Shown here one piece after another: positions 33,283 through 37,950 of a DNA stretch of 64,000 nucleotides. The position numbers were made by a program, and so were the translations under genes. This stretch comes from Streptomyces sp. Li-HN-5-11. Its GTDB lineage: Bacteria; Actinomycetota; Actinomycetes; Streptomycetales; Streptomycetaceae. Location: assembly GCF_032105745.1 (NCBI RefSeq), contig NZ_CP134875.1, positions 6,753,501 to 6,817,500 on the forward strand, given 5' to 3'. Under the pieces are notes generated by a model. It ran no database searches. It worked only from the letters and a program-made list of their open reading frames with translations, and was not told where the DNA came from. Every line of letters starts with the position of its first letter. Within the stretch, counting starts at the first letter, position 1.

Positions 33283-34347
33283 CTAGAGGTCGACCTCCTG
33301 CATGAGCATGCCGACCTCGGTGTTGGACAGCCGGCGCAGCCAGCCGGACTTCTGGTCGCCGAGGGTGATGGGACCGAAGGCGGTGCGGACCAGCTTGTCG
33401 ACCGGGAAGCCCGCGGCGGCGAGCATGCGGCGGACGATGTGCTTGCGGCCCTCGTGGAGGGTGACCTCGACGAGGTAGTTCTTGCCGGTCTGCTCGACGA
33501 CCCGGAAGTGGTCCGCGCGCGCGTAGCCGTCCTCCAGCTGGATGCCGTCCTTCAGCCGCTTGCCCAGGTCGCGCGGGATGGGGCCGACGATGTGCGCGAG
33601 GTAGGTCTTGCGCACTCCGTACTTGGGGTGGGTGAGGCGGTGCGCCAGCTCACCGTGGTTGGTGAGCAGGATGACGCCCTCGGTCTCGGTGTCCAGGCGG
33701 CCGACGTGGAAGAGCCGCGTCTCGCGGTTGGTGACGTAGTCCCCGAGGCACTGGCGGCCCTCCGGGTCCTCCATCGTGGAGACCACACCCGCGGGCTTGT
33801 TCAACGAGAAGAACTGGTACGACTGCGTGGCGACCGTCAGCCCGTCGACCTTGACCTCGTCCTTCTCCGGGTCGACGCGCCGGCCCTGCTCCAGGACGAT
33901 CTCGCCGTTGACCTCGACCCGGGCCTGCTCGATCAGTTCCTCGCAGGCCCGCCGGGATCCGTAGCCCGCGCGCGCGAGGACCTTCTGCAGCCGCTCGCCC
34001 TCCTGCTCGGAGCCCGGGAAGGTCTTGGGCAGCTTGATGTCCTTCTTGCCCGCGTACCGCTCACGGTTGCGCTCCTCGGCCCGCGCCTCGTACTCGCGGG
34101 AGCGCGCCGGAGCCGTACGGCCGCGCTGGGGCTGTGCCTTCTTCGGGCCGCCCTTGGCGCCGCCGCGGGCCGCGCCGCCGCGCCCGGACTTCGGGCCGTC
34201 CGGGGAGGCGCCGGGGCCCACGTCGTAGCGGCGCTCCTCGGGGCGGGGCTTGCGGGGGCGGCCCTGCCCCTGCTTCTGGTCCCTGTCGTTGCCGGCACCG
34301 CGGTAATTACCGCGCCCGCCGTTCTTGCCGCTGCCGCTGCTTCGCAT
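33283..34347 (-). CDS. rluB: 23S rRNA pseudouridine synthase RluB-type
   Basis: This 354-residue RsuA/RluB-family enzyme begins with about 110 disordered Arg/Gly/Lys-rich residues. An S4 domain follows (RLQKVLARAGYGSRRACEEL, IEQARVEVNG). The catalytic domain has GRLDTETEGVILLTNHGE with the catalytic Asp, RKTYLAHIVG and the C-terminal EGRKHIVRRM. It makes one pseudouridine in 23S rRNA. The ATG at 34347 overlaps the scpB stop by one base (TGATG), so the preceding TTG is not needed. It is the last gene of the parA-scpAB operon. Confidence 0.93.
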   Translation of the reverse strand: MRSSGSGKNGGRGNYRGAGNDRDQKQGQGRPRKPRPEERRYDVGPGASPDGPKSGRGGAARGGAKGGPKKAQPQRGRTAPARSREYEARAEERNRERYAGKKDIKLPKTFPGSEQEGERLQKVLARAGYGSRRACEELIEQARVEVNGEIVLEQGRRVDPEKDEVKVDGLTVATQSYQFFSLNKPAGVVSTMEDPEGRQCLGDYVTNRETRLFHVGRLDTETEGVILLTNHGELAHRLTHPKYGVRKTYLAHIVGPIPRDLGKRLKDGIQLEDGYARADHFRVVEQTGKNYLVEVTLHEGRKHIVRRMLAAAGFPVDKLVRTAFGPITLGDQKSGWLRRLSNTEVGMLMQEVDL

Positions 34348-35021
34348 CAAAGTTCCGTCGTCGTCGTGTCAGTCATGGCCGACGTGGCACCCTCGTCCGG
34401 GTCCGGAGCATCCGGATCGAACGACGGCACCCCCTCCTGGGTCTCGGCCTCGATCGCCTCCGCCTCCGGGAGGAAGGGCGCGAGCTCCGGGAGCTCGTCC
34501 AGACCGCGCAGGCCCATCCGCTCCAGGAAGTAGTTCGTCGTCCTGTACAGGATCGCACCTGTTTCGGGTTCCGTGCCCGCCTCCTCGATCAGACCGCGCT
34601 GGAGCAGCGTGCGCATGACCCCGTCGCAGTTGACTCCGCGTACGGCCGAGACGCGGCTGCGGCTGACCGGCTGGCGGTAGGCGACCACGGCGAGGGTCTC
34701 CAGCGCGGCCTGGGTGAGCCGGGCCGTCTGGCCCTCCAGGACGAGGCGCTCGACGGCCGGCGCGTACTCGGCACGGCTGTAGAAGCGCCAGCCGCCCGCG
34801 ACGAACCGCAGCTCGAAGCCGCGGCCCTGCACGGTGTAGTCGTCGGCCAGTTCCCGCAGCGCGTCCGCGATCCGCCGCTTCGGCCGTTCCAGGATCCTGG
34901 CGAGATGCTCCTCGGTCGCGGGCTCGTCCACGACCATGAGGACCGCCTCCAGGGCGGGCTTGAGGTCGAGTTCGGCGACGCCGCGCAGCCTCGCCGGAAG
35001 CTCGGTCGTCTCCTCGCTCAC
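34347..35021 (-). CDS. scpB: SMC accessory protein ScpB
   Basis: This 224-residue kleisin-associated winged-helix protein has LKPALEAVLMVVDEPATEEHL, GWRFYSRAEYAPAVERLV and the second winged helix AALETLAVVAYRQPVSRSR with RGVNCDGVMRTLLQRGLIEE. ScpB pairs with ScpA and SMC to condense and segregate the chromosome. An acidic tail of about 45 residues follows the second domain. The GTG at 35021 overlaps the scpA stop by four bases (GTGA), so the two are coupled. Confidence 0.95.
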   Translation of the reverse strand: MSEETTELPARLRGVAELDLKPALEAVLMVVDEPATEEHLARILERPKRRIADALRELADDYTVQGRGFELRFVAGGWRFYSRAEYAPAVERLVLEGQTARLTQAALETLAVVAYRQPVSRSRVSAVRGVNCDGVMRTLLQRGLIEEAGTEPETGAILYRTTNYFLERMGLRGLDELPELAPFLPEAEAIEAETQEGVPSFDPDAPDPDEGATSAMTDTTTTEL

Positions 35022-36208: not shown

Positions 36209-36775
36209 CTACCGTCCGCGCAGCCGTCGCACGAGGATGCTGGCGTCCCCGCGGGTCTCCAGATCGGCGAGGACGACGGCGACCGCCTCGCGGACGATCC
36301 GCCCGCGGTCGACCGCCAGCCCGTGCTCGCCGCGCAGGACCAGTCGGGCGTGTTCGAGGTCCATGAGCTCCTCGGCGGACACGTACACCGTGATCTTCTC
36401 GTCGTGCCGCTCCCGGCCGCTGGGGCGGCGTGCGGCCGCCCGGCCCCGCTTGCGCGGCGCGGCGGCGGAGGCCTGCGCGGCAGAACCTTCCTGCGCATCC
36501 TGGCGCCGCCCGGAGCGCTCCCCGGCCGCGCCACGGCTGCGGGACTCGGCGTCGGCCGGTTCGGCGTCGGCCGCGACGTGTTCCGCGCCCTCTCCGTCCC
36601 CGCCCTGTGCGGGCACGGAGTGCGGTGCGTCCTCCGCCGGGGCGGCCGCCGGGTCGCTCTCCCCGGCGGGAGCCGGCACCCGGGCCTCACCGTTGGCCGT
36701 GCGCCGGGGAGTCGACGGCTGGAGTGCCATCCCCCCTGTCGTACGGAAGAGTTCGTCGGCCCCCGGCAGACTCAC
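36209..36775 (-). CDS. Ribbon-helix-helix-like protein, partner of ParA
   Basis: This 188-residue protein has about 110 disordered, Ala/Pro/Arg-rich residues at the front. Its C-terminal region reads EKITVYVSAEELMDLEHARL, then HGLAVDRGRIVREAVAVVLADL. A single strand followed by two helices with this spacing resembles ribbon-helix-helix DNA-binding domains. It has no ParB-like domain. The GTG at 36775 is chosen because it overlaps the parA stop (GTGA); the ATG at 36730 has a poorly placed ribosome site. Together with ParA it may form a ParA/RHH pair, as in plasmid ParA-ParG systems. That role is an inference. Confidence 0.65.
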   Translation of the reverse strand: MSLPGADELFRTTGGMALQPSTPRRTANGEARVPAPAGESDPAAAPAEDAPHSVPAQGGDGEGAEHVAADAEPADAESRSRGAAGERSGRRQDAQEGSAAQASAAAPRKRGRAAARRPSGRERHDEKITVYVSAEELMDLEHARLVLRGEHGLAVDRGRIVREAVAVVLADLETRGDASILVRRLRGR

Positions 36776-37950
36776 TCGGCGTGACACCGGGCGAGCACCT
36801 CCCTGGCGAGCTGGCGGTAGGCGGCGGCACCGACGGAGTTGGAGGCGTACGTGGTGATCGGCTCGCCGGCGACCGTGGTCTCCGGGAAGCGGACCGTGCG
36901 CCCGATGACCGTGTGGTAGACGTGGTCGTCGAACGCCTCGACGACACGCGCGAGCACCTCGCGGCTGTGCACGGTGCGCGAGTCGTACATGGTGGCGAGG
37001 ATCCCGTCGAGCTCCAGCTCGGGGTTGAGGCGCTCCTGGACCTTCTCGATGGTCTCGGTCAGCAGCGCGACACCGCGCAGGGCGAAGAACTCGCACTCCA
37101 GCGGCACGATCACCTTGTGGGCGGCCGTGAGGGCGTTGACGGTGAGCAGGCCGAGGGAGGGCTGGCAGTCGATGACGATGTAGTCGTAGTCGTCCATCAG
37201 CGGCTTCAGTGCCCGCTGCAGGGTCGACTCGCGCGCGACCTCGGAGACCAGCTGGACCTCCGCCGCCGACAGGTCGATGTTGCTCGGCAGCAGGTCCATG
37301 TTGGGGACCGCGGTCTTCAGCAGGACCTCGTCCGCGGACATGCCCCGCTCCATGAGCAGGTTGTAGACCGTGAGGTCGAGCTCCATGGGGTTGACGCCGA
37401 GACCGACCGACAGCGCGCCCTGCGGGTCGAAGTCCACGAGCAGCACACGCCGGCCGTACTCCGCGAGCGCGGCCCCCAGGTTGATGGTCGACGTGGTCTT
37501 GCCGACGCCGCCCTTCTGGTTGCACATCGCGATGATCTTCGCGGGGCCGTGGTCGGTCAGCGGGCCCGGGATCGGGAAGTACGGCAGCGGGCGTCCGGTC
37601 GGGCCGATGCGCTCTCGGCGCTGGCGGGCCGCGTCGGGCGCGAGCGTGGCCGCGTACTCGGGGTCGGGCTCGTACTCGGCGTCGGCGTCGTAGAAGTGCC
37701 CGTCGGGCAGTTCGTCGTAGTCGGCGAAGTGGTTGTGGGGCGCGCCACTTCCGTCGCCGGCCATGGCGTTCACGTGATGGCCATCCATGCTCTGGTGTGC
37801 TGGCTGAGTCACCCCGGACGTCCGGTGACTCTGGTGGGCTGCGAAGGTGCGCACAGCGACGGAGCCGACAGCCTCGAATCCCGCGGGACCCTGGCCCCGT
37901 GCAGGCATTCCTGGTTGACCACCCCCGGGAGAAAATGTCGACTCATTCAC
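36772..37950 (-). CDS. ParA-family ATPase with long N-terminal extension
   Basis: This 392-residue MinD/ParA-type ATPase has the deviant Walker A NQKGGVGKTTSTINLG at about 144-159, LLVDFDPQGAL, the switch IVIDCQPSLGLLTVNAL and VIVPLECEFFALRGV. About 135 disordered residues (MNESTFSPGGGQPGMP) precede it, which is long for a ParA. It is separate from the parAB locus near oriC. The gene heads an operon with an RHH-like protein, scpA, scpB and rluB, so a role in chromosome organisation is likely. The GTG at 37950 has AAGGAGG 11 bases upstream. Internal starts such as ATG at about residue 55 are possible. Confidence 0.88.
   Translation of the reverse strand: MNESTFSPGGGQPGMPARGQGPAGFEAVGSVAVRTFAAHQSHRTSGVTQPAHQSMDGHHVNAMAGDGSGAPHNHFADYDELPDGHFYDADAEYEPDPEYAATLAPDAARQRRERIGPTGRPLPYFPIPGPLTDHGPAKIIAMCNQKGGVGKTTSTINLGAALAEYGRRVLLVDFDPQGALSVGLGVNPMELDLTVYNLLMERGMSADEVLLKTAVPNMDLLPSNIDLSAAEVQLVSEVARESTLQRALKPLMDDYDYIVIDCQPSLGLLTVNALTAAHKVIVPLECEFFALRGVALLTETIEKVQERLNPELELDGILATMYDSRTVHSREVLARVVEAFDDHVYHTVIGRTVRFPETTVAGEPITTYASNSVGAAAYRQLAREVLARCHAE

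What the first reader, a model, noticed from the sequence alone, without database searches (positions are those of the whole stretch)
33283..37950. ParA ATPase, RHH-like protein, ScpA, ScpB and RluB in one transcript
Overlapping or closely spaced genes (GTGA between parA and RHH, 18 bases to scpA, GTGA to scpB, TGATG to rluB) join a second ParA, a probable ribbon-helix-helix DNA-binding protein and the SMC accessory subunits. Plasmid segregation uses ParA with an RHH partner (ParG, Omega). A chromosomal ParA/RHH pair tied to condensin would be a distinct positioning system. The RHH assignment rests on pattern reading.
Basis: partly seen in the sequence, partly recalled or inferred. Interest (0 to 1): 0.7.

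Follow-up and report, generated by a model that had tools for sequence, protein, structure and literature searches.

The report
Chromosomal ParA/RHH pair beside condensin genes
Next to its condensin genes this Streptomyces carries a ParA motor gene paired with a small, apparently unstudied ribbon-helix-helix-like protein; the pair is old and comes with a conserved DNA signature, so it may be a chromosomal relative of plasmid-type and archaeal segregation machines, which experiments now need to test.

Summary
The operon is real: parA-like, RHH-like, scpA, scpB and rluB, all on the minus strand. The parA gene (SCO1772/PldP/Rv1708 type) is known; I found no paper on the second gene. An RHH domain at its C-terminus is supported by a confident strand-helix-helix model, RHH proteins at the top of weak structure searches, and a profile match to RHH_1 above all permutation controls. 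It also has a conserved N-terminal peptide, MSRRVSLPGADELFR, and a linker predicted to be disordered, the layout described for type Ib centromere-binding proteins. Its start is probably GTG 36787, not 36775. The gene follows parA on the same strand in 57 of 57 genomes and in 98 of 98 other loci, also where scpA is divergent, so it is tied to parA rather than to condensin. A motif search found a palindrome, TTTGTCGACAAA, at the parA start; it goes with the RHH gene (24 of 29 genomes with it, 7 of 34 without). Most likely the RHH protein binds this site, represses the operon and drives ParA2 ATP hydrolysis, like ParG/omega and archaeal SegB. DNA binding, ParA binding and any condensin link of the RHH protein are inferred. 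The site is not enriched genome-wide in this Streptomyces.

The parts
36772..37950 (-). ParA2 (PldP/SCO1772-type deviant Walker A ATPase, 392 aa, with a ~135-residue N-terminal extension)
36209..36787 (-). RHH-like protein, 192 aa from the conserved GTG at 36787 (188 aa from GTG 36775), stop included
36743..36787 (-). conserved N-terminal peptide MSRRVSLPGADELFR, candidate ParA-contacting tail
36407..36742 (-). variable Ala/Pro/Glu/Gly-rich linker, predicted disordered (block pLDDT 47-60)
36212..36421 (-). C-terminal ribbon-helix-helix domain plus short third helix
37934..37943 (-). palindrome variant AGTCGACATT over codons 3-6 of parA (consensus TTTGTCGACAAA), candidate RHH operator/centromere
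38033..38037 (-). GACAC starting 87 bases upstream of parA; matches the WhiA site reported 91 bp upstream of S. venezuelae sven1406
35018..36190 (-). scpA, with a PEPEPE-rich N-terminal extension
34347..35021 (-). scpB
33283..34347 (-). rluB-type pseudouridine synthase

Best explanation
The RHH protein is the dedicated DNA-binding partner of ParA2. A dimer of its C-terminal RHH domain binds the palindrome TTTGTCGACAAA at the parA2 start, so it represses its own operon and marks that locus. Its N-terminal peptide (MSRRVSLPGADELFR), on a long flexible tether, contacts ParA2 and stimulates ATP hydrolysis, probably through an arginine. ParA2 bound to the nucleoid is thereby cycled, as in ParF-ParG, delta-omega and archaeal SegA-SegB. 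In Streptomyces the operon is switched on by WhiA at sporulation, so ParA2, its partner and ScpAB would rise together when chromosomes are partitioned between spores. Shown here: operon, RHH-type domain (by prediction and profile), N-terminal motif, pairing, and association of the palindrome with RHH. Reported by others: WhiA binding, Rv1708-ScpA binding. Inferred: which protein binds the palindrome, ParA2 contact and stimulation, co-expression of the whole operon, and the cellular role.
Against: No direct binding data. Structure hits are weak: no Foldseek E at or below 0.001. Pfam, NCBIfam, PHROGs and PDB sequence searches find nothing for the protein. One family (f11) lacks the N-terminal peptide in all six loci examined, while the four f11 genomes tested keep the palindrome core. 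Three of the 18 other-class peptides end in FG instead of FR, so Arg15 is not universal. ParA2 persists without a detectable RHH gene in half of the class genomes (59 of 118 lack it). In the window's own genome the palindrome variant is not more frequent than chance (28 sites; 14-31 expected), so scattered centromeres are not supported in Streptomyces.
Confidence: 0.53

Rival explanations
1. The RHH protein is only the autorepressor of the parA2-scpAB operon. It binds the palindrome at the parA start and sets expression, and does not work with ParA2 as a segregation partner.
For: The palindrome sits on the parA start codon or upstream of it. No genome-wide enrichment in this Streptomyces. Family f11 keeps RHH and palindrome core without the N-terminal peptide.
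Against: A pure repressor does not need an N-terminal peptide kept across classes of the phylum. The gene stays with parA even where scpA is divergent.
Confidence: 0.28
2. The RHH protein is a link to condensin: its tail binds ScpA, ScpB or SMC and loads or retains the complex at its sites, with ParA2 as a co-factor.
For: scpA follows on the same strand in 51 of 59 RHH-positive class genomes. Rv1708 binds ScpA (PMC10482377).
Against: In 7 genomes of family f27 scpA is divergent while parA-RHH stays paired. In several loci of other classes scpA is not the next gene. ScpA is found in 114 of 118 class genomes, RHH in 59, so condensin mostly does without it.
Confidence: 0.1
3. The palindrome belongs to another regulator or to a translation-start signal, and the RHH protein binds elsewhere.
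For: The site often overlaps the start codon and the encoded N-termini are similar (M-S-T, K-S-T). Seven of 34 RHH-negative genomes have the core, two of 36 in frame near a start codon.
Against: The site is kept in frame, out of frame and in DNA upstream of the open frame. In L072, whose RHH strand has changed, the residues V-S-T-T are kept in frame but encoded GTG TCC ACG ACG, so the palindrome is lost (one genome).
Confidence: 0.15

Closest known systems
Archaeal SegAB (Saccharolobus)
   Different: Different palindrome (TCTAGA S TCTAGA); SegB has 39 ChIP peaks and 46-49 sites across the S. solfataricus chromosome, while this Streptomyces shows no excess of sites. Sequence relation to SegB was not tested.
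Type Ib plasmid partition (ParF-ParG, delta-omega, pCXC100 ParA-ParB)
   Same: Small centromere-binding protein with a flexible N-terminal tail and C-terminal RHH domain, which also acts as repressor; centromere upstream of the par operon (PMC5016525, passages read).
   Different: On the chromosome, with a different, strongly conserved tail. No credible relative in 72,556 plasmid or 50,697 phage records by tblastn.
PldP / Rv1708 / SCO1772 orphan ParA
   Same: The same kind of ParA; Rv1708 is reported to bind ScpA and ParB, PldP to act in division-site selection (PMC3989709, PMC10482377, PMC4255298, passages read).
   Different: Described as lacking a partner ParB (PMC3989709). Here an RHH gene follows this ParA in half of the class genomes.
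Second ParA of the same genome (oriC ParABS by recall)
   Same: Paralogous ParA at G000:C1:9422652-9423404, 45% identical.
   Different: The partner of the oriC-type ParA is an HTH-type ParB, not RHH (PMC13245405 passages, and recall); its context here was not examined.

Membership tests
Ribbon-helix-helix superfamily | strand-helix-helix order in the monomer | tested here: met
   AF2 domain model: extended segment before residue 23 (no strand called by DSSP in the monomer), helices 23-40 and 46-67, block pLDDT 96-98 over 21-70; same helices in the full-length model
Ribbon-helix-helix superfamily | profile similarity to known RHH families | tested here: met
   hhalign to 30 RHH_1 domains, score 26.6 against at most 16.7 in 200 permutations and 20.6 in 23 control windows; single-sequence Pfam scans give no RHH family (best row KRAB, E 0.068)
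Ribbon-helix-helix superfamily | structural match to solved RHH proteins | tested here: inconclusive
Ribbon-helix-helix superfamily | dimer with intermolecular beta ribbon that binds DNA | not testable with these tools
   only monomers can be predicted; no binding assay
Type Ib partition system | ParA-type ATPase gene followed by a small RHH gene | tested here: met
   57 of 57; 98 of 98
Type Ib partition system | flexible N-terminal tail with a conserved arginine | tested here: met
   R3, R4, R15 invariant in 27 aligned sequences that were chosen for carrying the motif; linker block pLDDT 47-60; but missing in 6 f11 loci and R15 absent in 3 of 18 other-class peptides
Type Ib partition system | tail stimulates the ATPase | not testable with these tools
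   needs biochemistry
Type Ib partition system | centromere of repeats upstream of the operon | tested here: inconclusive
   one conserved palindrome at the parA start, in two genomes a second copy after RHH; no array of repeats seen
SegAB | RHH protein binding palindromes at the ATPase start and at many chromosomal sites | tested here: inconclusive
   palindrome at the parA start; no genome-wide excess in this Streptomyces; in 12 other genomes 0-11 sites against 0-6 for a reversed control that does not match dinucleotide content
SegAB | sequence homology to SegB | not tested
   no SegB sequence was fetched
PldP/Rv1708 orphan ParA | second ParA in the scpAB neighbourhood, distinct from the oriC-type ParA | tested here: met
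   direct comparison with Cg1610 or Rv1708 sequences was not made
PldP/Rv1708 orphan ParA | septal localisation and division phenotype | not testable with these tools
   reported for C. glutamicum PldP (PMC3989709)

The most novel reading that the evidence does not exclude
Actinomycetota carry an ancestral chromosomal segregation module of the ParA/RHH kind, a bacterial counterpart of archaeal SegAB, in which an RHH adaptor on a long tether couples its palindrome-marked locus to a second nucleoid-bound ParA and, through ParA2-ScpA contact, to condensin during division and sporulation.
Probability: 0.25. Interest if true: 0.85.

Novelty: new variant of a known kind. Interest (0 to 1): 0.66.

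Why it matters
PldP/Rv1708-type ParA proteins have been treated as orphans without a ParB. If half of the Actinomycetes and members of other classes pair this ATPase with a dedicated RHH protein and a conserved site, the missing partner can be tested directly, including in Streptomyces venezuelae, where the parA-like gene is already a known WhiA/WhiB target. It would also put ParA/RHH segregation modules on bacterial chromosomes, not only on plasmids and in archaea.

Tried and rejected
Direct annotation of the RHH protein: Pfam, NCBIfam, PHROGs and PDB sequence searches give nothing. The only PDB profile hit, a designed TIM barrel (E 2.7e-5 summed over four identical repeats), is taken as spurious. 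The Foldseek viral library gave no hit at E 0.001 (best 0.13).

Mobile origin: tblastn in plasmids and phages gave only chance-level rows (best E 0.2 and 0.7). A viral-contig scan found no relative among 38 pattern matches.

TGGTCACCA/TGGTCAACCA flanking the parA start looked like an operator in the 8 Streptomyces loci. Of 34 loci from the phylum only L112 and L142 (Streptomycetaceae) have both and L121 the first, so it was dropped.

Genome-wide centromere array in the window's genome: 28 sites against 31, 14 and 17 expected from Markov orders 1-3, so not claimed. The reversed-pattern control alone (3 sites) would have looked like enrichment, because it does not match dinucleotide content. The same weakness applies to the counts in other genomes (6, 2, 3, 1, 2, 1, 7, 3, 8, 11, 3, 0 sites against 0, 2, 6, 0, 2, 0, 0, 0, 1, 2, 0, 1). 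One of those 12 genomes, G212, was not RHH-positive.

RNA elements: only two sub-threshold Rfam rows. The AbrB/MazE search meant as an extra profile control returned 5 loci and was not used. RHH_1 in the order gave 1 locus, so a phylum search was made; 30 of its listed matches had loci and all 30 were used.

The first hhalign run (score 32.2, probability 88%, best of 100 permutations 17.4, reversed 10.2) lost rows to duplicate names and included the divergent L072; it was repeated without L072, with a lower score, and the lower score is quoted. The first test of the palindrome (30 of 36 and 7 of 36) contained 4 loci sharing 40-mers with the training set and 5 redundant ones; one search removed them. 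In one search the real set had 60 random starts and the shuffles 40, and shuffling was by blocks of three bases. In one search the script kept the in-frame site farthest upstream; most of the 78 loci are Streptomycetaceae, and one printed row (L113) lies well upstream of the usual start.
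Full report
WHAT IS THERE. The window is Streptomyces-type DNA (71.8% G+C), part of a 9.43-Mb single-contig genome. Upstream lie an alanine dehydrogenase and an AfsR-like NB-ARC/TPR gene, as in the S. coelicolor pair SCO1773-1774 (PMC3878966, passages read). By this order the ParA is SCO1772, called parA2 (PMC4255298, passages read), of the PldP/Rv1708 kind (PMC3989709, passages read).

WHAT IS KNOWN. S. venezuelae sven1406, a parA-like gene, is a direct WhiA target, listed at 91 bp, with a footprinted GACAC conserved in S. coelicolor (PMC3781837, passages read), and a shared WhiA/WhiB target (PMC4850268, passages read). 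That sven1406 is this gene is inferred: GACAC lies at 87-90 bp in 8 of 8 Streptomyces loci examined, the window's own included. Rv1708 binds ScpA and ParB (PMC10482377, passages read). The RHH gene itself was not found in print: SCO1771 in 0 papers; a search for any of sven1404, sven1405, sven1406, SCO1770 and SCO1771 found only the two sven1406 papers; ribbon-helix-helix with ScpA and ParA gave 3 papers, and with ParA, Actinobacteria and chromosome segregation 8. Of these I read passages of PMC13245405 and PMC9178275 and only the search listing of the others; none of what I saw describes this pair. Only open-licence papers are held.

THE RHH PROTEIN. It has three parts. (1) An N-terminal peptide, about M[SPT]RR[VA][ST]LPGADELFR, matched by a pattern on its LP..ELFR part in 72 of 81 loci, and in 74 counting two with Met for Leu (some loci repeat one genome). 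The exceptions are six loci of family f11, which lack it, and one diverged sequence (L089). In the 20 other-class loci that I fetched, of 29 matches, I can read it in 18, three of them as LPGADLLFG; in two my start rule began downstream. The Streptomyces start is therefore probably GTG 36787. (2) A linker of 22-157 residues in the 20 sequences measured, 79-96% disorder-promoting residues, with block pLDDT 47-60. (3) A C-terminal domain with K-x-T-x-Y invariant in the 27 sequences aligned. The domain model is extended segment-helix-helix plus a third helix. Evidence that it is an RHH is the model, the leading but weak structural matches, and the profile comparison to 30 RHH_1 domains (score 26.6; 200 permutations at most 16.7; 23 control windows at most 20.6). 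I take it as very likely, not proven; the dimer was not modelled.

PAIRING. In an even sample of 118 class genomes, ScpA is found in 114, a ParA match at E 1e-60 in 117, some of these being paralogues (I took 108 as ParA2 by score), and the RHH domain in 59. In all 57 genomes where both were placed on one contig, RHH follows parA on the same strand; in the other two (G073, G158) no parA was in my list. scpA follows RHH on the same strand in 51 of 59, is divergent in the 7 of family f27, and is on another contig in 1. In 98 of 98 other loci with both genes (78 named, 20 from the phylum sample; some may be the same genomes as before) the pairing holds; two named loci, L105 and L139, show no parA. 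In the phylum sample RHH occurs in 38 of 246 genomes. Named carriers include Kitasatospora, Streptacidiphilus, Yinghuangia, and bins titled Frankiaceae, Acidothermaceae and Jatrophihabitans (only the best 80 of 589 are listed). Where RHH is absent, either parA and scpA are almost adjacent or, in 11 of 11 loci read, an M50/site-2-protease-like membrane protein follows parA.

THE PALINDROME. An EM motif search on 31 upstream regions found AtTTGTCGACAa (width-12 score 185; four shuffles 38-42). In the named loci, nearly all Actinomycetes, it usually lies over the parA start codon (TATGTCGACA, with ATG inside, or GTGAATGAGTCGACATTT in Streptomyces): in-frame TCG ACA precedes the core in 76 of 78, 75 with a start codon within six codons, although in the printed rows the start lies one, three or four codons before it; ACA is 3.5% of Thr codons there (mostly Streptomycetaceae and so not independent). 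In the class test sets such an in-frame site is found in 21 of 36 RHH-positive and 2 of 36 RHH-negative genomes; three f19 genomes have the site upstream of the open frame. In other-class loci, 16 of 20 have a site with at most one mismatch to TTGTCGACAA within 600 bp upstream of the ParA core. In loci not sharing 40-mers with the training set and not redundant, the core occurs in 24 of 29 with RHH and 7 of 34 without, and a match with at most 3 mismatches in 21 of 29 against 4 of 34 (relatedness not corrected). In L072, whose RHH strand has changed, V-S-T-T remains in frame but the codons are GTG TCC ACG ACG. These facts point to selection on DNA and to the RHH protein as the binder; that it binds is inferred. 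In two f77 genomes perfect sites flank the parA-RHH pair on both sides (G321, G282).

AGAINST. In the window's genome the variant occurs 28 times, with 14-31 expected, so there is no sign of scattered centromeres here. Half of the class lacks a detectable RHH gene, so ParA2 has another way to work or another partner. f11 lacks the peptide but keeps RHH and, in the four genomes tested, the palindrome core, so the two functions can separate.

HOW IT LIKELY WORKS. As in the type Ib description (flexible tail with arginine finger, RHH, repressor role; PMC5016525, passages read), the RHH dimer would bind the palindrome, repress the operon and stimulate ParA2 with its tail. [quoted passage not shown] It works like these by layout; membership in either is not shown. 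The link to condensin rests on gene order and on the Rv1708-ScpA report.

VERDICT. A real, conserved and apparently undescribed ParA2 partner candidate: a new variant of a known kind.

Noticed in passing
L061-L071 (for example L066, reverse strand 1579-2277): In RHH-negative lineages with a long parA-scpA gap, an M50/site-2-protease-like membrane protein directly follows parA in 11 of 11 loci read (Pfam M50 over cut-off in 1 of 2 scanned). In 4 of the 80 named RHH loci it lies near RHH and scpA too.
   Followed up: partly
window 38213-38241: Perfect inverted repeat GGCCGGACCTTG...CAAGGTCCGGCC between ald and parA, conserved in most of 8 Streptomyces loci, perhaps the ald terminator.
   Followed up: no
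window 37900-38080, minus strand: The stretch upstream of parA and its first codons are almost invariant in 8 Streptomyces loci, more than promoter, WhiA site and palindrome seem to need.
   Followed up: partly
window 35841-36058: scpA carries GGCTCC-type tandem repeats coding for a PEPEPE-rich extension before the ScpA domain.
   Followed up: no
window 37545-37950: ParA2 has a ~135-residue low-complexity N-terminal extension; in many relatives the frame is open for far less upstream of the Walker motif.
   Followed up: no
window 52765-52774: Second copy of the palindrome variant (TGTCGACAAA) in the window, 15 kb from the operon; 2 of 100 shuffles had two or more matches.
   Followed up: no
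L109, L117: Records titled Bifidobacterium breve and Candidatus Fonsibacter carry a complete parA-RHH-scpA-scpB-rluB array; the titles may be mislabelled bins.
   Followed up: no
family f11 (L049, L053, L056, L090, L091, L092): RHH kept but the N-terminal peptide replaced by an unrelated short sequence, often MPGHVS-like, a natural separation of function.
   Followed up: partly
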